Positions 43,331 through 56,146 of a stretch of DNA of 64,000 nucleotides are shown here, in pieces (within the stretch, counting starts at the first letter, position 1; every line of letters begins with the position of its first letter). Below the pieces are notes generated by a model. The model ran no database searches. It was given only the letters and a program-made list of their open reading frames with translations, and had not been told where the DNA came from. The translations under genes were made by a program, and so were the position numbers. Source of the DNA: Dyella acidisoli (lineage in GTDB: Bacteria > Pseudomonadota > Gammaproteobacteria > Xanthomonadales > Rhodanobacteraceae); assembly GCF_030160295.1 (NCBI RefSeq), contig NZ_BSOB01000046.1, positions 316,673 to 380,672 of the forward strand, given 5' to 3'.

Positions 43331-43390
43331 AAAACCCCAACATCGCGATATATGAGTGCGTGGCAGTGTTGGGGTTTGCCCCCCAATCTA
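43331..43390. repeat. TTGGGGTTTG palindrome, decayed
   Basis: AAAACCCCAACAT and TGTTGGGGTTTGCC form a truncated copy of the palindrome at 39-108, with a larger loop. It lies between the HAD gene and the exporter operon. Confidence 0.6.
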
Positions 43391-43399
43391 CGCTTCTAG

Positions 43400-43433
43400 C
43401 CCTCGCCCCAGCTCTCTCCCCGAAGGGGAGAGG
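43400..43433. repeat. CTCCCTCTCCCC hairpin repeat (copy 5)
   Basis: CCCTCGCCCCAGCTCTCTCCCC with GAAGGGGAGAGG. It lies just upstream of the exporter operon. Confidence 0.8.
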
Positions 43434-43500
43434 AGGTGTGTCACATAAGGCCGACCCGCTATGCTTAGCGTTTGCACGCCTTCATCGACGGTTTCCCCCT

Positions 43501-44973
43501 GTGCACGATCCTGCACTGCGCCATGCCCTCCCTGCGACCCGCCGGCCGAACACCGGGCTGCACCTGCTTTCCGCGCTGGTGCTGACCCTGCTGGCTGGCT
43601 GCGCCGCACCTCCCTTGCCAGCTTTGAAACCACCAGTGCCGCAAACCTGGCGCAATGCACCCGCGACCTACCCGAGCGCCGCGCAGCCAGACCTGCACAA
43701 CTGGTGGCAGGCCCTCAACGATCCACAACTAAACTCACTGGTACAGCGGGCGCTGGACCACAATCTGGACGTGAAGGCTGCTTCTGAGCGCGTACTGGCT
43801 GCGCGCACGCTGTACCGGCACACCAACGACAAATTCCTGCCCAGCCTGCGCTTCGACACTAACCAGGTGATCCAGCCTGACGCCAGCGCCTCCTACTTTA
43901 TCGTCGGCTTCGATGCGCTGTGGGAGATGCCTCTGTTCGGTGCACTCAAGAGTACGCACCGTCTCGCTGCCGGGAATCTCGACGCCGCGAGCGCCCAGTT
44001 GCAGGGCACCTACGTCACCCTGGTGGCCGAAGTGACGCGTTGCTGGGTCGCCCTGCGTACGGCACAGGAACAGGCCCGACTGCTGACGGCCGTGCGCGAT
44101 GCCAATCGCGAAAAACTCCGCCTGCTGGAAGTACGTGAAAAGCTGAAGCTGGTTTCACCCACCGACGTCGGCACCGCCAAAGCCGAGCTGGCCCGCTCCG
44201 ACATGGCCCTGACCGACCCGCAACGCGCCATGAACGCGAACGCACAGCAACTGGCAGTGCTGCTCGGCCAGAGCGAGCCTGATCCGGCATGGCTGGAAGC
44301 AAACGGCGCTCAACCGCAACTTGGCGAATGGCAAATGACCAGCGCGCCGGCCGATCTGCTGCGCACGCGACCGGAAATCGCTGCTGCCGAAGCCGACGTG
44401 CTGCGCGCGGCGGGTGAAGCGGGCATCAGCCGCGCGGCGATCTACCCGCATATTGGGCTGGGCAGTTCGCTGGACTGGTCGACGAACCTGCTCAGCCATC
44501 ACACGTTTATCCGCTCCGGCGACGGCATTTTTTCGGCCGGCCCGGTAGTCGATGTGCCACTGTTCGATTGGGGCATGCGCGTCGCGCAGGCGCGTTCCAA
44601 GCGCCACGAAATGCGTGCCGCCGTGTATGCCTACCGGCAGGCCGTGCTGCAGGGTGTAGCCGAAGCCGAAACGGCGATGGGCGATCTGCAGCAGGCGCAC
44701 ACGCGTGAGAGCGCTGCCATGCAGGCGGCGCAGGCGCTCGACGGCAACGCTGCCGCACTAAGCAAGCGCCGCAATCTCGGCTTGGCCAGCACGCTGGACA
44801 TGCAGGATGCCGTGATCGCCCAACAGAACGCGCAGCTTGAACTCGTTTCCGCGCGCGCAGAACGCGACCTCGCGTACGTAGCGCTGTACAAGGCGCTGGG
44901 CGGCGCACCTCAGCCTCCGGTGAACGTTGCGGCCGACTATAAGGCGCTTGGCAACAAGAAAGAGGCGCACTGA
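43501..44973 (+). CDS. TolC/NodT-family outer membrane efflux lipoprotein
   Basis: About 490 residues if GTG 43501 is used; it opens a signal with lipobox LLAGC (Cys34). An upstream ATG at 43360 extends through repeat sequence and is unlikely, but the start is unsure as no clear ribosome site is visible. Two TolC-type repeats are seen, with DLHNWWQALNDPQLNSLVQRALDHNLDV at the first and DVPLFDWGMRVAQARSK at the second. It should be the outer membrane channel of the exporter encoded next: the permease start overlaps its stop by one base. NodT-type lipoproteins export many small molecules. Confidence 0.88.
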   Translation: MHDPALRHALPATRRPNTGLHLLSALVLTLLAGCAAPPLPALKPPVPQTWRNAPATYPSAAQPDLHNWWQALNDPQLNSLVQRALDHNLDVKAASERVLAARTLYRHTNDKFLPSLRFDTNQVIQPDASASYFIVGFDALWEMPLFGALKSTHRLAAGNLDAASAQLQGTYVTLVAEVTRCWVALRTAQEQARLLTAVRDANREKLRLLEVREKLKLVSPTDVGTAKAELARSDMALTDPQRAMNANAQQLAVLLGQSEPDPAWLEANGAQPQLGEWQMTSAPADLLRTRPEIAAAEADVLRAAGEAGISRAAIYPHIGLGSSLDWSTNLLSHHTFIRSGDGIFSAGPVVDVPLFDWGMRVAQARSKRHEMRAAVYAYRQAVLQGVAEAETAMGDLQQAHTRESAAMQAAQALDGNAAALSKRRNLGLASTLDMQDAVIAQQNAQLELVSARAERDLAYVALYKALGGAPQPPVNVAADYKALGNKKEAH

Positions 44974-46106
44974 TGGTCGCGTTGGCACGCAAGACCCTGA
45001 TCTACGAATGGCGCCGCTTTCTCCCCGCGATTCTCGCGGTGGGTTTTGCGAGCCTGCTACAACTGCTGCAGGCAGCCCTGGTGCTGGGCATCTTCGGTAG
45101 CGCGAGCGTGTACATCACCGGTTCGTCCGCCGATCTGTGGGCGGGTTATCCGGGCACGCAGAGCGTGAACCTCGGCCGCCCCATCAACGAGGACGTAGCG
45201 ATGCGTCTGCGCATGGATCCAGATGTAGTGAAGGTAGAACCCTTCCGCTGGGTGGACGCCGACTGGCGCGGCCCACGCGATACCGGTGGCGTCTCGGTGT
45301 TCGTGTCCGGCATCGATCCGCGCGCCGACGGCATGATGTTTTCGCGCGCCCTGCCCCTGGCATTGCGCGCACGCTTGAACGAACCCGGTGCGGTGATCGT
45401 GGACAAGGCTGATCTCGACAGCCTGGGCGTGAGCATCGGCGATACCGCGGCCATCAACGGCCAGCGTGTGCGCGTGGTCGGTGTGAGCAGCGGTTTGCGT
45501 GCGCTCGGTGGCGTGAACATCGTCGCCTCGCTGGAAACCGCGCGGGTGCTCGACATTGCACCGGAAGACGCCGGCATGATGACCTACTTCGTCGCGAAAC
45601 TACGTCCTGGCGTCAGGCCTAAAGCGGCGGCGAGGCGCCTGAATGGCTCAAACGCGTTCGGGCCTTACACGGTTTGGACGGCCAAAGATTTCGCGCGCGA
45701 ATCGCAGTTGTACTGGATGTTCGACACCGGCGCGGGTGCTGGCGTGTTGTTCCTGGCCGGCATCGTGTTCCTGGTCGGCGCGGTGATCACCAGCCAGACG
45801 CTGATCGCTGCGGTAATCGGTTCAATTCGCGAATACGCCACCTTGAACGCGCTCGGCGTCGGCCGTGGCTCGTTGCGCAAGGTAGTGATGGAGCAAGCGT
45901 TCTGGGTAGGCGCACTGGGCTTGCTGTGCAGCGTGGTCATCGGCGCGATTCTGCTGGTGATTGCGCGTAATCGCAGCGTGCCGATGGAGATGCGCCCGTT
46001 GACCGCCTTGGCATGCCTGACGGTAAGCATGGCGCTGGCCATCGTGTCCGGGCTGGCTTCCGTGCGCAGCCTGCGCCGCGCAGATCCGGCGAGCCTGCTG
46101 AGATGA
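44973..46106 (+). CDS. ABC transporter permease, FtsX/DevC/MacB type
   Basis: A 377-residue inner membrane protein whose ATG overlaps the OMF stop. One hydrophobic helix near the N-terminus (AILAVGFASLLQLLQAALVLGIFG) is followed by a periplasmic domain of about 220 residues (LRMDPDVVKVEPFRW), then three helices in the C-terminal third (GVLFLAGIVFLVGAVI, AFWVGALGLLCSVVIGAILLV and a last segment near MALAIVSGLASV). This is the FtsX-type layout shared by LolC/E, MacB and DevC. With ATPase, adaptor and outer membrane channel genes beside it, it forms a tripartite exporter. The substrate is not given by sequence. Confidence 0.88.
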   Translation: MVALARKTLIYEWRRFLPAILAVGFASLLQLLQAALVLGIFGSASVYITGSSADLWAGYPGTQSVNLGRPINEDVAMRLRMDPDVVKVEPFRWVDADWRGPRDTGGVSVFVSGIDPRADGMMFSRALPLALRARLNEPGAVIVDKADLDSLGVSIGDTAAINGQRVRVVGVSSGLRALGGVNIVASLETARVLDIAPEDAGMMTYFVAKLRPGVRPKAAARRLNGSNAFGPYTVWTAKDFARESQLYWMFDTGAGAGVLFLAGIVFLVGAVITSQTLIAAVIGSIREYATLNALGVGRGSLRKVVMEQAFWVGALGLLCSVVIGAILLVIARNRSVPMEMRPLTALACLTVSMALAIVSGLASVRSLRRADPASLLR

Positions 46107-46858
46107 GCATGTCCGCAATCGCATCGAATCCCTCCGCGAACACACCCACGCTGCAAGCACGCAGCGTGCGCAAATCGTTCGTCTCCGGACGCGTTGAAAG
46201 CACGGTGCTGCACGATCTGACGCTGGACGTGCGTGCCGGCGAACTCACGCTGATCTCCGGGCCCTCCGGCTGCGGCAAGAGCACGCTGCTGGCGATCCTG
46301 AGCGGTTTGCAGCCCGCCGATACGGGCGAAGTCCGCGCCCTGGGGCACGATCTTCATGGCCTGAGCATGCGCGCACTGGAGGCGTTCCGTCTGCAGCACA
46401 CCGGTTTCGTGTTTCAGGGCTTCAATCTGTTCCCTGCACTCACCGCGCTGGAACAGGTGGAACTGCCGCTGAGCTACATGGGGCTGGCCAAAGACGTCGT
46501 GCGCAAGCGCGCGGTGGAATCGCTGGAAGAAGTCGGTCTCGGTCCACGCATGAGCATGTTGCCCATCGAATTGTCCGGCGGTGAAAAGCAGCGCGTCGCC
46601 ATTGCCCGCGCACTGGCCAAACAGCCGGAACTGCTCTTCGCCGACGAGCCCACCAGCGCGCTGGATGCCGCCAACGGACAGATCGTGATCGACATCCTGC
46701 ACCGCATTGCCCGCACACACGGCACCACCGTGCTCTGCGTCAGCCACGACCCGCGCCTGGTCCACCATGCCGACCGCGTGCTGGCGATGGAAGACGGCCG
46801 CATTCTGAGCGACCATGTGCCGCCCGCTGCATCCGCCGCGATCACCGAGCATTCCTGA
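46103..46858 (+). CDS. ABC transporter ATP-binding protein of the exporter
   Basis: About 251 residues from ATG 46103, which overlaps the permease stop (ATGA). Walker A is GPSGCGKST, the signature LSGGEKQR, Walker B LLFADEPTSALD and the switch His in VSHDPR. The sequence is of the LolD/MacB/DevA branch that works with FtsX-type permeases. A longer frame back to 46013 runs inside the permease gene and is not used. The adaptor gene follows after 11 bases. Confidence 0.95.
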   Translation: MSMSAIASNPSANTPTLQARSVRKSFVSGRVESTVLHDLTLDVRAGELTLISGPSGCGKSTLLAILSGLQPADTGEVRALGHDLHGLSMRALEAFRLQHTGFVFQGFNLFPALTALEQVELPLSYMGLAKDVVRKRAVESLEEVGLGPRMSMLPIELSGGEKQRVAIARALAKQPELLFADEPTSALDAANGQIVIDILHRIARTHGTTVLCVSHDPRLVHHADRVLAMEDGRILSDHVPPAASAAITEHS

Positions 46859-46869
46859 GAACCTCACGC

Positions 46870-47775
46870 ATGATTCTGCGCAACCTCCGCCTTCCGCTCA
46901 CCCTGCTCGCCGCCATGCTGTTGGCTGGGTGCTCGCAAGACGAAGCACCGGCTTCCACGTCCAACACTAATACCGCGGCGTATTCCGCGGTGGCGCGTGG
47001 GCGTATCGATATCGAAGGCGGCCTGCTCAAACTCACCATGCCCAGCGAAGGCGTAGTGGCCCAGGTCAACGCGCATGAAGGCGAGCATGTGCACAAAGGC
47101 CAGTTGGTGGCGCAGCTTGAACTTGAACCCGCGAAGCTGGCGCTGGACTCCGCGCTGGCAGAACAACAACAGGCGACGGCGCAGATCGCCGCGCTGGAAG
47201 AGCGCGCGAAATCCGCGAACGTGCGTGCGTCGCGCTTGGAACAGGCCGCCAAGGCTGGTGCCGGCGACGTGCAGAGCGCGGATGATGCACGCCAAGCCGC
47301 ACAACAGACGCAGGTGGAATTGAACAATGCACGCGCGGCTACCGCACTGGCCGCGCAGAAAGTAGCTGGCGCCCGTTATCAGCTCGAATTGCGCAGCTTG
47401 CATGCCCCCGTCGACGGAGAAATCGTGCAGCGTCTGGTCCAACCCGGCGCATCGGTGTCACCCGCGGCGGGCCCGATCTTCGTGATGCTGCCGGACTCGC
47501 CGCGTATCGTGCGCGCCGAACTCAACGAATCCTTCGTTGGCGTGGTGCACGAAGGCATGGCGGCGGAAGTGGACGACGACAGCGGCAGCGGCATGGCCCC
47601 GCTCAAGGCGCACGTACTGCGCATCGGCAATGTGTTCGGCGCCAGCACGCTGGAAGACGATCCGCAGGTGCGCGCCAATACGCGCTCGGTGGAATGCGTG
47701 CTGACTTTTGATCAGCCACCTTCGACGCCGTTGCGCATTGGGCAGCGAGTGTTAGTGAAGTTTGCGCCGAAGTAA
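46870..47775 (+). CDS. HlyD/RND-type periplasmic adaptor lipoprotein
   Basis: A 301-residue membrane fusion protein. The signal ends in the lipobox LLAGC (Cys21), so it is inner-membrane lipid-anchored. Residues about 55-85 form the first lipoyl half (GVVAQVNAHEGEHVHKGQLV), followed by a coiled-coil hairpin of about 90 residues and the second lipoyl half (LELRSLHAPVDGEIVQRLVQPG). A beta-barrel part follows. It links the permease to the outer membrane channel, and is the last gene of the exporter operon. It is shorter than RND adaptors such as AcrA. Confidence 0.9.
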   Translation: MILRNLRLPLTLLAAMLLAGCSQDEAPASTSNTNTAAYSAVARGRIDIEGGLLKLTMPSEGVVAQVNAHEGEHVHKGQLVAQLELEPAKLALDSALAEQQQATAQIAALEERAKSANVRASRLEQAAKAGAGDVQSADDARQAAQQTQVELNNARAATALAAQKVAGARYQLELRSLHAPVDGEIVQRLVQPGASVSPAAGPIFVMLPDSPRIVRAELNESFVGVVHEGMAAEVDDDSGSGMAPLKAHVLRIGNVFGASTLEDDPQVRANTRSVECVLTFDQPPSTPLRIGQRVLVKFAPK

Positions 47776-47830: not shown

Positions 47831-47879
47831 CTGACAGGCTCCCTGCTTAGTACCTAATTAGTGTCGAGCCTCGGCTGGG

Positions 47880-48383
47880 TATGTCGTTTGTTGGGGTATT
47901 GCCTGCGGCGCTTCCGGTCGCGAAGCGACCGGGTCACTTTTCTTTGCTGGCCCAAAGAAAAGTAACCCAAAGAAATGGCCTCAAGAGCTCATGGCATTGC
48001 ATCGGTTACAAGCTTGGTGGATGTCGCCATGCTTTGATCGATGGCGAGCCAAGCTTCTACCACCCCGCTATACCGCGAGGCGTCGAGACGCTGAGGACTT
48101 AAGGCAGATCTGGCAGATCTCAGCAAAGCTCAACCTATCGGAAGGCGCGCTTTAAGCCCTCAGTGCTTCGACGCCTCGCGGTATAGCGGGAGCGTCGAAC
48201 CTTGGGCAACCAACCACCTATCTAGCCATACACGTTCAGGCTTTTAGCCTCCCCATGCTGTGAGCCTGTTAGGCCATTTCTTTGGGTTACTTTTCTTTGG
48301 GCCAGCAAAGAAAAGTGACTCGGGCCCTTTAGGGTCCGAAAGCTCCGAAAGCGCCGCAGGCAATGCCCCAACACCACGACATA
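47880..48383. repeat. Large nested inverted repeat (about 500 bases)
   Basis: The outer arms 47880-47980 and 48272-48383 are near-perfect reverse complements, from TATGTCGT..TTGGGG to AAAGAAATGGCC, with a short divergent part near GGTCGCGAAGC. Each outer arm contains its own hairpin ACTTTTCTTTG-CTGGCC-CAAAGAAAAGT. Inner arms 48064-48086 and 48168-48190 (CCCGCTATACCGCGAGG... and its complement) are perfect. The whole region 47831-48440 contains no gene. It separates the convergent exporter and glycolipid operons. Short frames inside the arms are repeat by-products. Confidence 0.9.
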
Positions 48384-48440
48384 CACAGCTGAGGCAAGAC
48401 GCGAATCAGGTACTGATGGAGCCTGAAGTCCACCAAAGCC

Positions 48441-49739
48441 TCATTCGGCTACGACTCCAAATGTACCCAAAGGCTCTGGCGTCCGGGCATGCTGCCCGGC
48501 ATGCATTTCAAGCAAAGTCATGAATTGACATTTCAGCGCATCGACTTCGGCGTGGCTTAAACACTTTTCGTCGCCCAAATAGATAAAACGGAGCTGACCA
48601 TGCAACGAATAGGCGATGATGCCCAAAAGCCTCACGACGAATGAATGCACAAACAGGCGGAAGTCCTTCAACTCAAAGGGCGCATCCTCGTCAATCACTT
48701 GAATATTGCCGAGGTTGGAAAATGAAAATACCCTCCGATTGCCGCGGCCGCTCAAGAAATTCTGCAGCCTCACGATCGATCGCATCTTGCTCTCGGAAGG
48801 CACCTTGATCATCTCAAAGAACTGATGCTTCGCAGGGATATTGACCAGCTCCTGTTCTATTTTCAGGCGGACCTCCGCATGGATCTTGCGCACCCTCTCC
48901 CAGAAATCCTCAGTATCGTTCTGCCCTGACTTGATCTTGAAACTGCCGCCACTGAAAAAGAGCATGTCGCTCTTGATCATGGATAGTCGCCCACCACGCC
49001 GCCCATCGAAAGGATTGTCTATCCATGCCGGGGCTTGCTTGCCGAACGTCGCCTGCAGCGCCTTATCCAACACGGCCAACAAGGCCGTATGCATGGACAC
49101 TCCCTCGAGCTTGCAGCGCTGCCTCAGCAGGGTCGACAACCCCTGGCTTGCGCTCCACTCCCGATAGATTTCCTTATTTTCCACCGGCCTCTGAGAGCCC
49201 GGAACCAACCCGATCACCGCGTTCATGATGCGCGCCGCGCGCCGACGCTTGGGCAGGCCTTCATCGCGCAAATCGCCGATGATGTCGTGAAGGGTCAAGG
49301 GTGCGTAGGGAACCATCGCGTCATCACTGTGCAGCGACTTGAGTATCTCCCTGACCAAGGTGAGCACACTCATGCCATCGCAGATGCGATGCGAGGTCGT
49401 GATAAGCAATTCGTTGCTCAGCCCTGATCTCAACCAGACGACACGCAACTGCGGTTGATGATGCGGAAAGGCCATGATCAGCTCAGCCTCGCGGGCTCCG
49501 GTGCAGTCCTCTTCCGAATTCATCTCGACAATGCGCAGCGGAATAGCCCCGGCCGTATCCGCTTCGTAGTAGAGCTCATCGCCCTGCTGACTGATAAGCG
49601 CCCGCAACGCCGGATGTTTACGCTGCACCCGATCGAGTGCCGAGCGAAGTCGATCCATCGAAAGGTGGCCATCCACGCTGACCCGGCAGGTGATATTGCC
49701 CTCGATCAAATGCTCCACGGTGGAGAGCTTCTGTTTCAT
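48441..49739 (-). CDS. Condensation-domain-fold acyltransferase
   Basis: A 432-residue protein with an AGGAGG ribosome site. It has the two-lobed fold of NRPS condensation and PapA-type acyltransferases: an N-terminal LSTVEHLIEGNITCRVSVDGHLSMDRL, the active-site motif SHRICDG near residue 117 (the HHxxxDG motif with its first His replaced by Ser, catalytic second His kept), and a C-terminal lobe with FSFSNLGN. It lacks carrier and adenylation domains. It is the last gene of the four-gene operon and starts 9 bases after the rhamnosyltransferase. It may add an acyl group to the glycolipid product. This is inference. Confidence 0.8.
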   Translation of the reverse strand: MKQKLSTVEHLIEGNITCRVSVDGHLSMDRLRSALDRVQRKHPALRALISQQGDELYYEADTAGAIPLRIVEMNSEEDCTGAREAELIMAFPHHQPQLRVVWLRSGLSNELLITTSHRICDGMSVLTLVREILKSLHSDDAMVPYAPLTLHDIIGDLRDEGLPKRRRAARIMNAVIGLVPGSQRPVENKEIYREWSASQGLSTLLRQRCKLEGVSMHTALLAVLDKALQATFGKQAPAWIDNPFDGRRGGRLSMIKSDMLFFSGGSFKIKSGQNDTEDFWERVRKIHAEVRLKIEQELVNIPAKHQFFEMIKVPSESKMRSIVRLQNFLSGRGNRRVFSFSNLGNIQVIDEDAPFELKDFRLFVHSFVVRLLGIIAYSLHGQLRFIYLGDEKCLSHAEVDALKCQFMTLLEMHAGQHARTPEPLGTFGVVAE

Positions 49740-49748
49740 GCTCGCCTC

Positions 49749-50717
49749 CTATTCAGCGGTTGCCGATGAATTGTCCTGAATGAGAATCTCTTCGCGCGAG
49801 GACCGCTTGCAGAATGCAGCGATCCTTGGATGCCTGCTTTCGAAGGTTCCTAACACACCGAGCCGTCCATCCACGTAGCCGGCAACCATCGCAACAAGCT
49901 TGCGCAGCTTCTGCGGTTCGAACAGCACGACGCAAAGTGCCCAATGGATGGCCAATGGGCCGCTCAGCCAGTGCAGCGACCATTTTGATCGGTAAAGCCG
50001 TAGCGAATGAACGGCGTTGCGCGTGCCGTAATAGCGCCGCCATGCTGCATGATTAGTGGTAAACAACTTTCCGTGTCGCTCGATATTCCCCGTGGTTTGC
50101 CGCATCGTCACCGCGGCATTCATATAAACCGGGACGCCCAGACTCGTTGCACGAAGGCCATATTCGACATCAATGCATTCGATGAAATAGTCCTCCTTGA
50201 AGGCGCCCACCGTCCGGTATGCTTGTGCAGATATGGCTGAGCCAGAGGAGATCACGAAGAGGGTGGGAAACAACCCCTCGATTTCCTTATCAATGCGGAA
50301 CGGCTTGGGAAACCTTCGCCCTGGCGGCGTCACCGGCATGCATCGCTGCAAATGAATTTCGTAAATCTTAGGACCCATGATGAATATATCGGTGCCAAGC
50401 CCCGAGCATGCCTTCATCATTTTTACGAAAAATTGCTCATCAATATCCGAATCCTGATCGAGCAGGAAAATCACCTCACAGCCCTGCTCTAGCAGCAGAT
50501 CCGCACCTCGATTGTAGGCACCAGCCAGGCCACCTTGATTGCGATTGAAGATCACAGTGGTGCCAGCCTGTCGCAGCGTCTCGTGAAGATGCAAGTTCGG
50601 CTCGGGCGAGTTATCGACAGCAATGACGTTTCGACATAGCGCCGTTGCTTTGTGAAGATTGCTCACGAATTCGGCAGTGGGCTGGTAGAGCACAAAGATC
50701 AAGCCAAAGGTTTCCAT
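49749..50717 (-). CDS. GT2 rhamnosyltransferase (RhlC-like)
   Basis: About 322 residues from ATG 50717, which has GGAGGGAA upstream. It closely follows the RhlC pattern: FVLYQPTAEFV, VIAVDNSP, RNQGGLAGAYNRG, FLLDQDSD (the DxD-type metal site near residue 87), FVISSGSAIS, YFIECIDVEYGLRA and a C-terminal RRYYGTRNAV segment. RhlC adds a second rhamnose in di-rhamnolipid synthesis, from dTDP-L-rhamnose, at the inner membrane. The similarity is judged by eye. It is co-transcribed with the acyltransferase (9-base gap) and follows the RhlB-like gene by 91 bases. Confidence 0.88.
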   Translation of the reverse strand: METFGLIFVLYQPTAEFVSNLHKATALCRNVIAVDNSPEPNLHLHETLRQAGTTVIFNRNQGGLAGAYNRGADLLLEQGCEVIFLLDQDSDIDEQFFVKMMKACSGLGTDIFIMGPKIYEIHLQRCMPVTPPGRRFPKPFRIDKEIEGLFPTLFVISSGSAISAQAYRTVGAFKEDYFIECIDVEYGLRATSLGVPVYMNAAVTMRQTTGNIERHGKLFTTNHAAWRRYYGTRNAVHSLRLYRSKWSLHWLSGPLAIHWALCVVLFEPQKLRKLVAMVAGYVDGRLGVLGTFESRHPRIAAFCKRSSREEILIQDNSSATAE

Positions 50718-50808
50718 GGCATTCCCTCCGGTATCAATGACAACTCGCCACGTTGTTGCACCATCCAGGCTGAAGAAGAACCTTCGCCGGCCACACAAGC
50801 CGCCGATT

Positions 50809-52134
50809 TCAACCCACGTTACGCAATGGTTCGATAGCCGACTCATCCACAATCGGCGACAAGAAACCCCAGGCTTGCAGGCAACGCAATGCGACAGCTA
50901 CGCCATCTTCTGCTCGCACGCGCTCGCCCAGTGCCGCAGCGGATCGACGCATAGGCTCCTGCAGCGTGCTCTCGATGGCGCCCGCCAGTGCTTCTGCACT
51001 TAGCTGTTTGCGATCCAGCGCGGGCGGTGCCATACCTTCACGCTGCAAGCAGCGCGCCCAGAACGGTTGATCGCCATAAAACGGCACGATCACGGAGGGA
51101 ATGCCAGCACGGACAGCCGCCGCGGTCGTGCCGGCGCCACCGTGATGAACCGCGGCAGCTATGCGCGGGAATAGCCAATCATGCGGCGCACCTTGGGTAA
51201 TGAAGATCCGCTCGTCTTGCGCTCCCTCTTCAGCCGCCAGGCCGCCCCAGCCAGTCGCGAGCACGGCACGCTGACCACTGCGGCCGATGGCGTCGAGCAC
51301 GCAAGCCGTAAACTGTTCCGCCTGTGCGCTCACCATGCTGCCGAATCCCACGTAGATCGGCTTGGGTCCCGCATCGAGAAAATCACGCAAAGCATGCGAT
51401 GGCTGCCAGTACCGCTCATCAAGAAACCAGTAACCGGTGATCTGTGCGGCGTCAGGCCAATCGACTGGCCTGGGCACGATGTGGCGACTGAAACCGTACA
51501 GCACGCGCTGCTGCCGGCTGTGGAAGTAAGGCCCGTACCACGGATAACGCGGCAAGCCGAGCTGCGAACGCACGGTATCGTTGATGGCCGGCTTCATGAC
51601 ATACCACACCAGCAGGCGCAGCACGTTGTACAAGGGCATGTTGAGGAACTGCGGTAACGTGCCTGCGCCTGACAGCACCAAGGGCGGCATAAAGCGCGAT
51701 GGCGTCAGCGGTTGCAACTGCGCAGCCACGAAGGGAATGCCGCGCGCCTCGGCCACCGCTTTGGCCAGCAAGGTGCTGTTGGCCACGCCGATCAGCAAGC
51801 CGGCACCTTCCGCGGCAGCCATCCCTTCACGCGCCCAGTGCACAGCCCAATCGCTATAGAAACGCCGCGAGATACGCGCCATGGCTGCCATGTTCAAGCC
51901 TTGCTCGGTCATCTCGCGATTGGAGTCGAGCAAGTGCTGGAAATTGGCGGTCAGCGGGAAGAAGTCCAGCCCCGCTGCACGCACCATGCTTTCAAAGTTG
52001 TCGCTGGTGACGATGCGGACCGGATAACCCGCACGCCGCAGGCCGGCACCCAACGCCACGCAAGGTCGGATATCGCCTTGCGTGCCTACGGTGAAAATGG
52101 CGATGGGCGCGCCGTGCGCGATGATGTCACGCAT
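50809..52134 (-). CDS. GT1 glycosyltransferase (RhlB/UGT-like)
   Basis: About 441 residues. ATG 52134 has GGAGAA upstream and overlaps the NRPS stop by eight bases. The N-terminal domain begins IAIFTVGTQGDIRPCVALGAGLRRAGY, the acceptor-side Rossmann fold of GT-B enzymes. The nucleotide-sugar motif AAAVHHGGAGTTAAAVRAGIPSVIVPF is near residue 330. This matches the UGT/MGT/RhlB group, which glycosylates lipids, sterols and polyketides. RhlB transfers the first rhamnose to the lipid in rhamnolipid synthesis. With an RhlC-like gene next in the operon, sugar transfer to the NRPS product is the simplest reading. Confidence 0.85.
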   Translation of the reverse strand: MRDIIAHGAPIAIFTVGTQGDIRPCVALGAGLRRAGYPVRIVTSDNFESMVRAAGLDFFPLTANFQHLLDSNREMTEQGLNMAAMARISRRFYSDWAVHWAREGMAAAEGAGLLIGVANSTLLAKAVAEARGIPFVAAQLQPLTPSRFMPPLVLSGAGTLPQFLNMPLYNVLRLLVWYVMKPAINDTVRSQLGLPRYPWYGPYFHSRQQRVLYGFSRHIVPRPVDWPDAAQITGYWFLDERYWQPSHALRDFLDAGPKPIYVGFGSMVSAQAEQFTACVLDAIGRSGQRAVLATGWGGLAAEEGAQDERIFITQGAPHDWLFPRIAAAVHHGGAGTTAAAVRAGIPSVIVPFYGDQPFWARCLQREGMAPPALDRKQLSAEALAGAIESTLQEPMRRSAAALGERVRAEDGVAVALRCLQAWGFLSPIVDESAIEPLRNVG

Positions 52135-55100
52135 AGGCCGCGTTCTCCGCAAATGGCTGTCCAGCATCCATCGCCGGCAAGGCTGCAGCAGCTGGAACGC
52201 GAATGGATTGCAGCGCATGCATCCGTTGCATCACCCGTTTGCCGACATGCGTGGCGTATTCGGCGTCCAGCATCGCCTGGTGATGGCAAGGCACGTCGTG
52301 CACATCCAGCCGGCCATCCACATAGGGACGCCAGGCTTCAGGCTTGTCATGCAACTGGCCGCTTAGATCGACCTCACCCTTGATCGCCGCGTTCAGGAAC
52401 ATCACGTCAGCATCGATCCGCTGTGGCACATGCTTGCGTGCCAGCAGCAAGTTATTGAGCGTGACAGCGGAGACGTGCTCGATCAGATGCGAATCCTTGC
52501 GGGTGATTTCCTGCACCAGCGGCATGTCGAACACCCCATATTCCTTGCACAGCAGATCGGTCAACGCAGCGAAGTCCGCCGGTGGATTTTCCACCGCGTG
52601 ATGATGGAAACCCAGGAAGCGAAGGATCGACCGGATCTCGTGCGACGGATTGGCATCTGCCTGCGCGTCGTCGATAACGAACGGATACGCATCCAGCAGG
52701 GCGAGAAATTCAACCTGCTCGCCGGCACGCTGCAATTGCGCAGCGACCTCATGCGCAATCAAGCCGCCCAGGGACCAGCCCAGCATGCGATAAGGACCTT
52801 CCGGCTGCACTCGCCGCATCTGCACCAGATAATCTGCCGCGATCTCCGCGATGCTCTCGGGCAGCACGCCACCGCGCAAGCCGCGCGACTGCAAGCCGTA
52901 CACCGGCAGCTTGTCATCCAGATAACGCAGCAGGCCACCATAGCCCCAGCTCAAGCCCACGGCCGGGTGGATGCAGAACAGCGGACGTTCGCGCCGTGCT
53001 ATCCGTAGCGGCAGTACGATGCCGAGCGGATCGCTGCTGCTTTCCGCGCGTTGCAGATACGCGGCCAGACTACCGATGGTGGAAGCTTCGAACAGGCTGG
53101 CCAATGGCAATTCCATACCGAAGTGCTCGGGAAAGCGTGCGACCATTTCTGCCGCTTTGAGCGAGTCGCCACCGAGCTGAAAGAAATTGTCGTGCAGACC
53201 GATCCGTTCCACACCCAGCACCTGCTGCCATAGCACGGCCAGCTTCTTCTCGATCCCGGTCACTGGCTCGGCATATGCCGTCTTGCTGGAACGTGCGGGC
53301 AGCGGCAGGGCCTTGCGGTCGAGCTTGCCACTGGACGTCAACGGCATGGCGTCGAGCACGATAAGCTGTGCGGGAATCATGTACTCGGGAAGGAACTTCG
53401 CCAGATGCTGGCGCACCGCATGGATGCTGGCATCCATACCTGTCCGCATCACCACGTAGCCGGTGAGCGAGGGGACACCGTCCTGCTCGCTATGTACTGT
53501 CACTGCCGCCTCGGCAATGGCAGTGTACCGCACGAGCTGGCATTCGATTTCACCCAGCTCGACGCGATGGCCACGGATTTTCACCTGGCCATCGGCACGG
53601 CCGACGAAGTGGAGCAACCCTTTGTCGTCCCAGTACACCAGATCGCCAGTGCGATACATGCGGGTGCCATCACTGATGAAAGGATCAGCCAGAAAACGCG
53701 CTTCAGTGAGCTGGTGATGATGCAGGTAACCCTTCGCCACACCCGCACCGGCGATATACAACTCGCCCACCGCGCCGGTCTGCACAGGGCGCTGGTAGGC
53801 GTCGAGAACGTAGAGCCGGGTATTAAGGATGGGACGGCCAATGGGTGGTGCACTAACACCGTCCGCAGCATCAAGTTCAAATACGGTGGACCATACCGTC
53901 GTTTCGGTCGGCCCGTAGAACTGAATGACACGTGCAGCACGGCGCTTTAGCTGTCCAGCCAGTTCGGCGTTAAGTGCTTCGCCGCCAATCAGCACGTTCA
54001 CCTGCTGCAAATCCAGATTCGGACTTGCCAGCAACACCCGCCAGAGCGAAGGCGTGGCTTGCATATACGTTGCGCGATGCTGGCGGATCAGTCGAGCCAA
54101 TGCGGGAGGCGTACGAACGTCCTCGCTACCGGCCATGATCACGCAAGCGCCGATTGTCAAAGGAAAGAAAACCTCCAGAACGGAGATATCAAATGTCATG
54201 GTCGTCACGGCCAGGAAACGATCGCTGGCCTGCATGCCCAAAGGCGCGCGCATACCTTGCAGAAAATTGGCAAGGTTACGATGCGTCACCTCGACACCTT
54301 TCGGCTTGCCCGTTGAGCCGGAGGTGTAAAGCACATAGGCGGTCGCATCAGCACTGACCAAGTCAGGCTCGCTTGGCGCCGCCTCCGATGACACGTCCAG
54401 GTCCTCGGGATGCAAGATCATCATGCCGCCAACCGCAAATTGCTCGCAAAGTTCGCGCGTAGCGATCAGGGCAATGGGTGACGCATCGCTCAGCATCATG
54501 GCAATGCGATCCCTTGGTCCATTCGGATCCAAAGGCAAATAAGCCGCGCCCGTGCGCATGATGGCCAGCAATACAACGATCCACTGTTCGCTACGCGGCA
54601 GCATGACTGCAACGATGTCGCCGGGGAGAATGCCGTCGGCGATAAGCTGCCTGGCTTGCTTTACGCTTCGCTCGTGAAGTTCCCGATAAGTCACGGTCGC
54701 GTCCTCGAAGATCAGCGCCGGAGCGTCTGGATTCAAGGCTGCCTGAGATGCAACCAGCGCAGGAAGGCTGGTCAATGAAAGGAGAGCTTCGGTTGCATTC
54801 CATTCGTGCAACAGACGACGGCGCTCGTCGATGCCCAATATGTCGATATCCTGCAATGCTTGGGACGGATCGGCCAGCACCGCCTCTACCAGCAACGCCA
54901 GCCGACGGCGATGCTCATCCAGTTCGGGCATGCTATAGAGCGCAGGATTGGCGTCGAAGTCGAAGCGCAATTCGCTGTCATCGCCCCGATCGTAGACGAA
55001 TACCGTCAAATCCTCGGCCGATCCATTCGACACATTGTGTGAAATGGCCGGAGCCCCTGCGAAACTCAGTTGGTAATCGAAAGGCTCGATGTTCACACCC

Positions 55101-56146
55101 AGCCATGCAAGGTGCTGGCCTTTGGTGACCAGGCCAACATCCCGCCGGACATCTTCGTAACGGTATTGCTGGTGCCGCAGCGTCTGCCTTACTGCCTGGG
55201 CGACTTGCGCAAACAGGTCGACAGTCGTCATGCCTGGCGTAAAGCTCAGCCGAATCGCTACTGCGTTGGCGACCATACCGGGGCAGTTGCGCAACTGCGC
55301 ACTCATACGTGCCGACACCGGCATGCCAATGACAAGGTCGTGGGCACCCGTTGCGCGATGATAATAAGCCGCCACCAGCGCGATCAGCATTTGAGGAAGA
55401 CTGGTGGAGGTCTGCTTGCCCAACTTACGCAAGCGTTCTACCGTCGCTATCGAGAAGTGTCCAATACTTCGCCGCAAGCCACCCATGCTGCTGCGGTGAT
55501 TTCCACGTGCTAGCGATACGGCCTCGGGCAGATCAGCAAGCTTTCCCTTCCAGAATTCTCGGTCTCGATGGAAGCGGCTCGAATCTCGATAGCTCGCCTC
55601 GGCTTCGAGCAGATCCTTCAGTGGACCAAACTCGCAGGGTTCAGGTTCGCGTCCTTCCATGTACGCTGTGTAAAGCTCAGCCAATCGGCGCGCGATCAGG
55701 CCACCGCTGTAGCCGTCGTAAACGATGTGATGGGCGCGCTGATACCAGTAATAACGATCGTCGGCAGCCTTGAACAACGCGCTGACAAACAAGGGATCGT
55801 TGGCCAGATCGACCGGACGGCTCAATTCCTCCAGCATCCACGCTTCCGCCGCGGCACGTGGATTGGCCTCGCGACTCACATCCAGAAAAGGGAAATGACC
55901 GTTGTACACGGCCCTCACAATCTGTCGGGGCTGGCCGTGATGCTCCACCACGGCTACGCGCAAGGTCTCCGCTTCATGCGTGATCTGCCATAAGGCACGC
56001 ATGAAAAGTTCGGGCTGTACTGGCCCACAGATCTCCAGCATCTCGGCGATGTTCAAGGTGGCATCTGCTGCGCCGATCTTCTGGCCCACCCACAATCCGC
56101 GCTGCGCGGTGGTCAATGGCAGCGACAAAAGTGACTCGTGACTCAT
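52127..56146 (-). CDS. Single-module NRPS, C-A-PCP-TE
   Basis: About 1339 residues, from ATG 56146 with AAGGAGAA upstream. The condensation domain (about 1-440) has HHIVYDG at residues 139-145. The adenylation domain (about 455-950) has TSGSTGKPKG, QFYGPTETT near 743 and YRTGDL. The carrier has LGGDSLKA with Ser near 991, and the type I thioesterase (about 1065-1320) has GWSLGG with Ser near 1124. A module that begins with a C domain and has no partner upstream suggests an acyl-CoA or acyl-ACP starter. The reading-frame code D-I-L-Q-L-G-F-V-W-K resembles glycine codes. It overlaps the GT gene by eight bases. No MbtH or PPTase gene is in the window. Confidence 0.92.
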   Translation of the reverse strand: MSHESLLSLPLTTAQRGLWVGQKIGAADATLNIAEMLEICGPVQPELFMRALWQITHEAETLRVAVVEHHGQPRQIVRAVYNGHFPFLDVSREANPRAAAEAWMLEELSRPVDLANDPLFVSALFKAADDRYYWYQRAHHIVYDGYSGGLIARRLAELYTAYMEGREPEPCEFGPLKDLLEAEASYRDSSRFHRDREFWKGKLADLPEAVSLARGNHRSSMGGLRRSIGHFSIATVERLRKLGKQTSTSLPQMLIALVAAYYHRATGAHDLVIGMPVSARMSAQLRNCPGMVANAVAIRLSFTPGMTTVDLFAQVAQAVRQTLRHQQYRYEDVRRDVGLVTKGQHLAWLGVNIEPFDYQLSFAGAPAISHNVSNGSAEDLTVFVYDRGDDSELRFDFDANPALYSMPELDEHRRRLALLVEAVLADPSQALQDIDILGIDERRRLLHEWNATEALLSLTSLPALVASQAALNPDAPALIFEDATVTYRELHERSVKQARQLIADGILPGDIVAVMLPRSEQWIVVLLAIMRTGAAYLPLDPNGPRDRIAMMLSDASPIALIATRELCEQFAVGGMMILHPEDLDVSSEAAPSEPDLVSADATAYVLYTSGSTGKPKGVEVTHRNLANFLQGMRAPLGMQASDRFLAVTTMTFDISVLEVFFPLTIGACVIMAGSEDVRTPPALARLIRQHRATYMQATPSLWRVLLASPNLDLQQVNVLIGGEALNAELAGQLKRRAARVIQFYGPTETTVWSTVFELDAADGVSAPPIGRPILNTRLYVLDAYQRPVQTGAVGELYIAGAGVAKGYLHHHQLTEARFLADPFISDGTRMYRTGDLVYWDDKGLLHFVGRADGQVKIRGHRVELGEIECQLVRYTAIAEAAVTVHSEQDGVPSLTGYVVMRTGMDASIHAVRQHLAKFLPEYMIPAQLIVLDAMPLTSSGKLDRKALPLPARSSKTAYAEPVTGIEKKLAVLWQQVLGVERIGLHDNFFQLGGDSLKAAEMVARFPEHFGMELPLASLFEASTIGSLAAYLQRAESSSDPLGIVLPLRIARRERPLFCIHPAVGLSWGYGGLLRYLDDKLPVYGLQSRGLRGGVLPESIAEIAADYLVQMRRVQPEGPYRMLGWSLGGLIAHEVAAQLQRAGEQVEFLALLDAYPFVIDDAQADANPSHEIRSILRFLGFHHHAVENPPADFAALTDLLCKEYGVFDMPLVQEITRKDSHLIEHVSAVTLNNLLLARKHVPQRIDADVMFLNAAIKGEVDLSGQLHDKPEAWRPYVDGRLDVHDVPCHHQAMLDAEYATHVGKRVMQRMHALQSIRVPAAAALPAMDAGQPFAENAAYA

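What the first reader, a model, noticed from the sequence alone, without database searches (positions are those of the whole stretch)
48441..56146. Four-gene NRPS, RhlB-like, RhlC-like and acyltransferase operon: possible glycosylated lipo-amino acid pathway
The operon joins a one-module NRPS (C-A-PCP-TE) to two glycosyltransferases whose families match those that build rhamnolipids (GT1 like RhlB, GT2 like RhlC) and to a stand-alone condensation-fold acyltransferase. The tight spacing (8-base overlap, 91 and 9 bases) suggests one product. RhlA, which supplies the lipid in rhamnolipids, is missing; the NRPS could supply an N-acyl amino acid instead. The product is then predicted to be a rhamnosylated, perhaps further acylated, lipo-amino acid. 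Seen: domains and motifs. Known: RhlB and RhlC roles. Inferred: their joint product.
Basis: partly seen in the sequence, partly recalled or inferred. Interest (0 to 1): 0.85.

Follow-up and report, generated by a model that had tools for sequence, protein, structure and literature searches.

The report
Extended glycine-glycolipid operon in Dyella
A soil-type bacterium carries a four-gene operon that probably builds a sugar-decorated fatty acid linked to glycine; its first two genes belong to a gene pair already described in Xanthomonas and the oil-eating Alcanivorax, and the last two are extra decorating enzymes that usually travel with it.

Summary
In detail: four same-strand genes at 48441-56146 (NRPS C-A-PCP-TE, GT1, GT2, stand-alone condensation-fold acyltransferase) with the stated 8-base overlap and 91/9-base gaps. 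The adenylation pocket reads DILQLGFVWK, a glycine signature, and the C domain's nearest solved relative is a lipid-loading starter domain, so the core product is likely an N-acyl-glycine. GT1 is not RhlB (27.5% identity, separate clade; nearest solved relative a sterol glucosyltransferase). GT2 is a sister of RhlC below that family's cut-off, so rhamnose is not established. The NRPS + overlapping-GT pair is known: Royer et al. 2013 reported it in X. albilineans and A. borkumensis and predicted glycine + beta-hydroxy acid + sugar; A. borkumensis makes a glycine-glucolipid. I found no description of the GT2/acyltransferase extension (10 searches, one open-access library). GT2 occurs in 11 of 147 family genomes, each time in this operon; in the mapped operons the order is NRPS-GT1-[penicillin-acylase-family enzyme]-[ACY']-GT2-[ACY]. 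In 3 of 18 order-wide genomes GT2 lies without the NRPS nearby. The neighbouring exporter is not dedicated. Best reading: an extended glycine-glycolipid pathway, a new variant of a known kind.

The parts
52127..56146 (-). NRPS, single module C-A-PCP-TE, 1339 aa; predicted to load glycine and N-acylate it with a (3-hydroxy)fatty acyl group
54809..56122 (-). C domain, starter (lipid-loading) type; HHIVYDG motif intact
   Evidence: domain limits; nearest solved chains 7c1k/7c1h/7c1p, which are RzmA-Cs, then EntF, ObiF1, CDA-C1
53324..54748 (-). A domain; ten-residue pocket DILQLGFVWK (glycine type)
   Evidence: 5 EntF-like outgroup rows give the serine type DVWH[FM]SLVDK by the same column extraction
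53054..53245 (-). PCP domain, LGGDSL with the phosphopantetheine serine
52244..52987 (-). Thioesterase domain, GWSLGG
50809..52134 (-). GT1: GT-B glycosyltransferase, first sugar; overlaps the NRPS by 8 bases
49749..50717 (-). GT2: family-2 glycosyltransferase, sister of RhlC; second sugar (identity unknown)
48441..49739 (-). ACY: stand-alone condensation-fold (PapA-like) acyltransferase

Best explanation
The operon makes an extended glycine-glycolipid. Steps: (1) the NRPS A domain activates glycine onto the PCP; (2) its starter C domain joins a fatty acyl group, most likely 3-hydroxyacyl from CoA or ACP, to the glycine nitrogen, and the TE releases an N-(3-hydroxyacyl)glycine; (3) GT1 puts a first hexose, most likely glucose, on the free hydroxyl; (4) GT2 adds a second sugar; (5) ACY esterifies a sugar or chain hydroxyl with a further acyl group. 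The product would be an anionic, cell-bound or secreted surfactant-like lipid. Shown here: domain make-up, intact motifs, glycine-type pocket, a C domain closest to starter domains, linkage and gene order across relatives. Inferred: the hydroxylated acyl donor, both sugars, the acylation site, and the order of steps 3-5.
For: Glycine-type pocket in 33 of 44 aligned NRPSs, including the window; the 5 EntF-like outgroup rows read as serine type. C domain nearest to starter domains. The family NRPS forms one group of 39 rows apart from the 5 EntF-like rows (quick tree). Royer et al. 2013 (passages): same C-A-PCP-TE gene overlapping a GT by 4 or 8 bp, glycine signature, starter C domain, also in A. 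borkumensis ABO_1784/1783; predicted product glycine + beta-hydroxy acid + glycosyl. A. borkumensis glycine-glucolipid: four 3-hydroxy acids, glucose at one end, glycine amide at the other. GT2 in 11 of 147 family genomes, all 11 in the operon; ACY at 50% identity or more in 9 of 147, all 9 in the operon; 11 of 18 operon-bearing versus 0 of 129 other genomes, Fisher p 2.7e-12 for GT2 (genomes are related, so p is only indicative). Order NRPS-GT1-[PA]-[ACY']-GT2-[ACY] in the mapped operons. Fold matches of ACY: AzeD, PapA5 and, among others, a mannosylerythritol-lipid acyltransferase.
Against: No product is known to me from any organism with GT2 and ACY. Neither GT has a tested donor; GT1's nearest solved relative glucosylates sterols. 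I could not fetch an Alcanivorax sequence by name, so homology to ABO_1783/1784 rests on Royer et al., not on an alignment made here. In 3 of 18 GT2-bearing genomes of the order sample no NRPS lies in the fetched region (L230 keeps GT1-ACY'-GT2-ACY; L232 and L233 keep only ACY'-GT2). Seven of the 18 operons of the family sample (L031-L036, L045) lack GT2 and ACY, and two more (L037, L044) have GT2 without ACY. Six of the 39 family NRPSs do not have the plain glycine-type pocket (L031-L035, L054). The ACY model is moderate (pLDDT 79.5).
Confidence: 0.7

Rival explanations
1. Rhamnolipid-like pathway: GT1 and GT2 are RhlB and RhlC equivalents, both transferring L-rhamnose, to an N-acyl amino acid.
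For: GT2 is 32-33% identical to RhlC of P. aeruginosa and B. glumae and shares its LDQDS/ISSG pattern. It is the only TIGR01556 match in the genome at 1e-10.
Against: GT1 is only 27.5% identical to RhlB and outside its clade. GT2 is below the TIGR01556 cut-off that two true RhlCs pass. No RhlA-like hit, without a positive control.
Confidence: 0.15
2. Serratamolide/serrawettin-like route: the single-module NRPS dimerises two acyl-amino acid units through its TE, and the glycosyltransferases decorate the resulting cyclic lipopeptide.
For: Same C-A-PCP-TE architecture as the one-module serrawettin synthetase (recalled, no call).
Against: That enzyme loads serine (recalled); the pocket here is glycine type. 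A ring made of 3-hydroxyacyl-glycine would tie up the hydroxyls that the GT needs (inference).
Confidence: 0.07
3. GT2 and ACY act on a different glycolipid or a surface polysaccharide and only share transcription with the NRPS-GT1 pair.
For: L232 and L233 carry ACY'-GT2 with neither NRPS nor GT1 in the fetched stretch. The NRPS-GT1 pair also exists alone.
Against: In the family sample GT2 and close ACY occur only inside the operon, 11 of 11 and 9 of 9, in a constant order. A Bryobacterales MAG contig, nested inside the Xanthomonadales rows of the NRPS tree, carries NRPS, GT1, ACY', GT2 and three ACY together.
Confidence: 0.1

Closest known systems
Short NRPS + overlapping glycosyltransferase of Xanthomonas albilineans (XALc_0364/0365, XALc_1145/1144) and Alcanivorax borkumensis (ABO_1784/1783, with PPTase ABO_1782); Royer et al. 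2013, PMC3849588 (passages read)
   Same: Single C-A-PCP-TE module, starter C domain, glycine signature, GT overlapping its 3' end (8 bp here, 4 or 8 bp there).
   Different: The window adds GT2 and an ACY in the same operon and has no adjacent PPTase. The paper's main text does not contain the words acyltransferase, rhamnosyltransferase or Dyella; its supplements were not read.
Glycine-glucolipid of A. borkumensis (PMC10684412, PMC10710537, PMC6669457; passages read; Cui et al. 2022 not held, its gene work only recalled)
   Same: Predicted building blocks: 3-hydroxy fatty acid, glycine amide, one hexose.
   Different: Two glycosyltransferases and a condensation-fold acyltransferase predict a more decorated molecule; product here not measured.
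Rhamnolipid pathway RhlA-RhlB-RhlC
   Same: Two successive glycosyltransferases of the same broad families; a beta-hydroxy lipid as acceptor.
   Different: An NRPS replaces RhlA; GT1 is not in the RhlB clade; GT2 is a sister of RhlC.
PapA-type and related condensation-fold acyltransferases (PapA5, AzeD, MEL acyltransferase)
   Same: Fold and HxxxDG motif.
   Different: 14-22% identity to these in the fold match; 21.7 bits against the PapA5 model, cut-off 396.

Membership tests
Glycine-type short NRPS + GT pair (Royer et al. 2013) | One C-A-PCP-TE module | tested here: met
Glycine-type short NRPS + GT pair (Royer et al. 2013) | Glycine-type specificity code | tested here: met
   DILQLGFVWK; that this code means glycine is recalled, and agrees with Royer's statement on the XALc_0364 signature (its letters are not in the passages seen)
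Glycine-type short NRPS + GT pair (Royer et al. 2013) | Starter C domain | tested here: met
   the best solved relatives are lipid- or aryl-loading starter domains (that EntF, ObiF1 and CDA-C1 are starters is recalled); no C-domain type tree was built
Glycine-type short NRPS + GT pair (Royer et al. 2013) | GT gene overlapping the NRPS 3' end | tested here: met
   8 bases
Glycine-type short NRPS + GT pair (Royer et al. 2013) | Sequence homology to ABO_1784/ABO_1783 | not tested
   no named Alcanivorax sequence obtained; the X. maliensis, Zhongshania and Spongiibacter pairs are 45-48% (NRPS) and 43-51% (GT1) identical
Glycine-type short NRPS + GT pair (Royer et al. 2013) | PPTase in the cluster (A. 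borkumensis form) | tested here: not met
   the genome's only PF01648 match lies elsewhere, G000:C4:107515. A match to the PPTase of L065 follows GT1 in 9 marine loci
Rhamnolipid pathway | RhlA-type acyltransferase in the genome | tested here: inconclusive
   no match at 1e-5 with B. glumae RhlA; the call had no positive control
Rhamnolipid pathway | GT1 groups with RhlB | tested here: not met
Rhamnolipid pathway | GT2 passes the rhamnosyltransferase TIGR01556 cut-off | tested here: not met
   156.7 bits against 200.55; RhlC controls 220.9 and 393.5
Rhamnolipid pathway | Product contains rhamnose | not testable with these tools
   needs chemistry
PapA-type acyltransferase | Condensation fold with HxxxDG | tested here: met
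PapA-type acyltransferase | PapA5 model cut-off | tested here: not met
   21.7 bits against 396
EntF-type siderophore synthetase | Serine pocket | tested here: not met
   EntF-like rows separate in the tree

The most novel reading that the evidence does not exclude
The window is one state of a modular glycolipid toolkit built on a glycine-loading NRPS-GT1 core. Add-ons in constant order set the fate of the lipid: GT2 and ACY enlarge the head, a sulfotransferase-family gene in marine relatives may sulfate it, and a penicillin-acylase-family enzyme (6 mapped operons, nucleophile serine kept in 6 of 6) cuts the acyl-glycine amide and so releases the glycolipid from the cell. Species without that enzyme, like the window's, would keep the lipid on the cell, as A. 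borkumensis does.
Probability: 0.2. Interest if true: 0.7.

Novelty: new variant of a known kind. Interest (0 to 1): 0.5.

Why it matters
The complete pathway of the A. borkumensis glycine-glucolipid was called not elucidated in 2023 (PMC10710537, passage). This operon family gives a comparative handle: it ties a glycine-type starter NRPS to its own glycosyltransferase in Gammaproteobacteria, Alphaproteobacteria and one contig of an Acidobacteriota MAG, and shows which tailoring genes nearly always travel with it in Xanthomonadales. It makes directly testable who adds a second sugar and an extra acyl group, and whether an operon-borne acylase decides between cell-bound and released surfactant. 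It also warns that 'RhlB-like' labels on such GTs, in A. borkumensis as here, are not evidence of rhamnose.

Tried and rejected
Exporter as part of the unit: the MacAB/Dev-like genes at 43360-47775 lie beside the operon in the genus. I fetched the exporter region of five genus members that have no GT1 of the operon's group. In 4 of 5 (L203, L204, L206, L207) the same exporter lies 342 to 531 bases from the same GNAT gene, too close to hold the operon; the fifth (L205) runs off its contig. Rejected as dedicated to the operon.

GT1 as RhlB: rejected. Siderophore synthetase: rejected, no serine pocket. Sigma-70 promoter scan: nothing useful, 1 hit against 3.8 expected by shuffles. Plasmid collection: no closer relatives, all matches under 60% identity, but it gave named RhlA/B/C controls.

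Rows dropped: four loci with only weak partial NRPS hits (L081, L094, L116, L123) were not counted as NRPS neighbours. GT1-group counts leave out 3 of the 21 genomes, whose only hit was 32-35% identical (G038, G062, G092). Duplicate loci L174 and L183 were left out of the 44-row NRPS set.

One automatic gene-family clustering merged GT2 with ACY; I replaced it by direct matches to named queries. Reading two further X. albilineans papers (PMC4584326, PMC3542200; passages) added no gene beyond the known NRPS-GT pair.
Full report
What is there. Pfam gives Condensation, AMP-binding, PP-binding and Thioesterase in the NRPS, a GT-B transferase, a family-2 transferase and a second Condensation-fold protein. 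The motifs checked in the window read intact. The window is G000:C46:316673-380672.

Which amino acid. Mapping the ten pocket positions onto an alignment of 44 related NRPSs gives DILQLGFVWK for the window. Of the 44, 33 have the glycine-type pattern, 5 (L031-L035, one subclade of the same genus) read DILWLGLVLK, 1 (L054, Lysobacter) DIFQLTLVWK, and 5 EntF-like outgroup rows read DVWH[FM]SLVDK, the serine type, which serves as a control on the column choice. The positions and the meanings of the codes are recalled from the GrsA work; Royer et al. independently call the signature of the X. albilineans relative glycine.

Which kind of C domain. The nearest solved chains are 7c1k, 7c1h and 7c1p (294-299 bits), then EntF, ObiF1 and CDA-C1 (198-208 bits). 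The first set is RzmA-Cs, a lipid-loading starter domain (PMC7804268, passages). So the module most likely opens a chain with an acyl group; it has no preceding module in the operon.

GT1. It matches sterol 3-beta-glucosyltransferase at 184 bits over residues 12-419 of 441 and B. glumae RhlB at 27.5% identity over 360 aa. In a 60-row tree two RhlBs are split from the other 58 rows by a long, fully supported branch. GT1 falls in a mainly NRPS-linked group that also holds GTs with no NRPS hit in the fetched stretch (L058, L059, L061; L115 is basal). Glucose is therefore likelier than rhamnose, but donor specificity is not shown.

GT2. 32.9% and 31.8% identical to RhlC of B. glumae and P. aeruginosa. 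TIGR01556 gives 156.7 bits (cut-off 200.55) against 220.9 and 393.5 for those RhlCs. It may work like an RhlC, adding a second sugar, but fails that family's test.

ACY. Condensation fold with HxxxDG; fold matches are AzeD, PapA5, many NRPS C-type domains and a mannosylerythritol-lipid acyltransferase (pLDDT 79.5, 7 rows in the alignment). The acceptor is unknown.

Conservation. In 147 genomes of the family, 21 have a GT1 hit at 1e-60, of which 18 are of this group and 3 only distant. All 18 have the NRPS beside it (the window, and 17 of 17 fetched). GT2 occurs in 11 of 147 and ACY of 50% identity or more in 9 of 147, always inside the operon; one genome (G028) has a further, 31% identical ACY-like gene elsewhere. 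Fisher p is 2.7e-12 and 7.1e-10, indicative only, because genomes are related. Against strict unity: 7 of the 18 operons (L031-L036, L045) lack GT2 and ACY, and L037 and L044 have GT2 without ACY. In 398 genomes of the order, 18 have GT2 at 1e-50; 15 have the NRPS in the fetched region and 3 do not: L230 keeps GT1-ACY'-GT2-ACY, L232 and L233 keep ACY'-GT2 alone.

Gene order. In the mapped operons with GT2 the genes lie as NRPS-GT1-[PA]-[ACY']-GT2-[ACY], one strand, bracketed genes optional. PA is a penicillin-acylase-family protein (nearest solved: D-succinylase and glutaryl-cephalosporin acylase). The serine that aligns with residue 1 of solved acylase beta chains is kept in 6 of 6 loci (L037, L042, L044, L046, L226, L227). 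Of 12 genomes searched for PA at 1e-20, 4 have it, each inside the operon, one with a second, weak match elsewhere; the window's genome has none. More distant PA-like genes (37-38%) lie on the other strand near three marine loci (L165-L167). A contig of a Bryobacterales MAG (Acidobacteriota) carries NRPS-GT1-ACY'-GT2-ACY-ACY-ACY and nests inside the Xanthomonadales rows of the NRPS tree: horizontal transfer, or a mis-binned contig, which I cannot tell apart. The NRPS tree is a quick one with some long branches.

Wider family. Of 80 loci kept from the named-genome scan, 11 have an NRPS of 41% identity or more beside the GT: Dyella (2), Frateuria, Bryobacterales, Lysobacter, Nitrospirillum, Xanthomonas maliensis, Zhongshania, Rhizobium, Spongiibacter and Acidomonas; in Acidomonas the two genes face each other. 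In 390 genomes of the order of Zhongshania, 23 have an NRPS match at 1e-200 (25 places); 16 of the 25 have GT1 adjacent. There a sulfotransferase-family gene precedes the NRPS in 11 mapped loci and a PPTase follows GT1 in 9, the order NRPS-GT-PPTase that the locus tags of Royer et al. imply for A. borkumensis.

Exporter. The efflux genes at 43360-47775 adjoin the operon but keep their place next to the GNAT gene in 4 of 5 genus members examined without the operon; the fifth is cut by its contig end. They are not counted as part of it.

Literature. Royer et al. 2013 (PMC3849588, passages) describe the core pair and predict glycine linked to a beta-hydroxy acid and a glycosyl residue; its main text has no mention of acyltransferase, rhamnosyltransferase or Dyella. 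A. borkumensis makes glucose-(3-hydroxyacyl)4-glycine (PMC10684412 and PMC10710537, passages). PMC6669457 (passages) says a glycine-free form is thought to be released by an unknown amide-cleaving enzyme; PMC10710537 says later work refuted that form in A. borkumensis. Cui et al. 2022 and the 2006 genome paper were not held; that Cui et al. name an NRPS is recalled. I found no paper on the GT2/ACY extension in searches, which cover one open-access library; only 27, 77 and 94 aimed at it, and I saw their listings only.

Verdict. A real operon, an extended form of a known NRPS-GT core. The likely product is a doubly glycosylated, further acylated N-(3-hydroxyacyl)glycine. The chemistry is untested; sugars and acyl position are open.

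Noticed in passing
window 47849-48414: Nested inverted repeats (arms of 39, 29, 75 and 57 nt, 82-93% complementary) between the convergent exporter and ACY genes; the core motif occurs only here in the window, once in each arm. Possibly a mobile or REP-like intergenic element.
   Followed up: partly
L037, L042, L044, L046, L226, L227 (between GT1 and ACY' or GT2): Penicillin-acylase-family gene inside the operon of relatives, nucleophile serine kept in 6 of 6; a candidate for cutting glycine off the lipid.
   Followed up: partly
L057, L065, L165-L170, L172, L173, L176 (upstream of the NRPS): Sulfotransferase-family gene (PF13469 in the one member scanned, L172) before the NRPS in 11 mapped marine-type loci; in L175 it is on the other strand. 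The lipid may be sulfated there.
   Followed up: partly
L031-L035, NRPS A domain: A subclade of the window's genus has the pocket DILWLGLVLK and lacks GT2 and ACY: amino acid switch and loss of decoration in one lineage.
   Followed up: no
L205:10007-10969: In G092 the site next to the exporter holds the PCP-TE end of a different NRPS (35% identity) running off the contig.
   Followed up: no
L053:12494-16329: Bryobacterales MAG contig with three ACY copies in tandem after GT2; perhaps repeated acylation.
   Followed up: no
L232 and L233: ACY'-GT2 pair without NRPS or GT1 in the fetched stretch, with an amidase-domain and an MFS gene nearby in L232; may decorate another lipid.
   Followed up: partly
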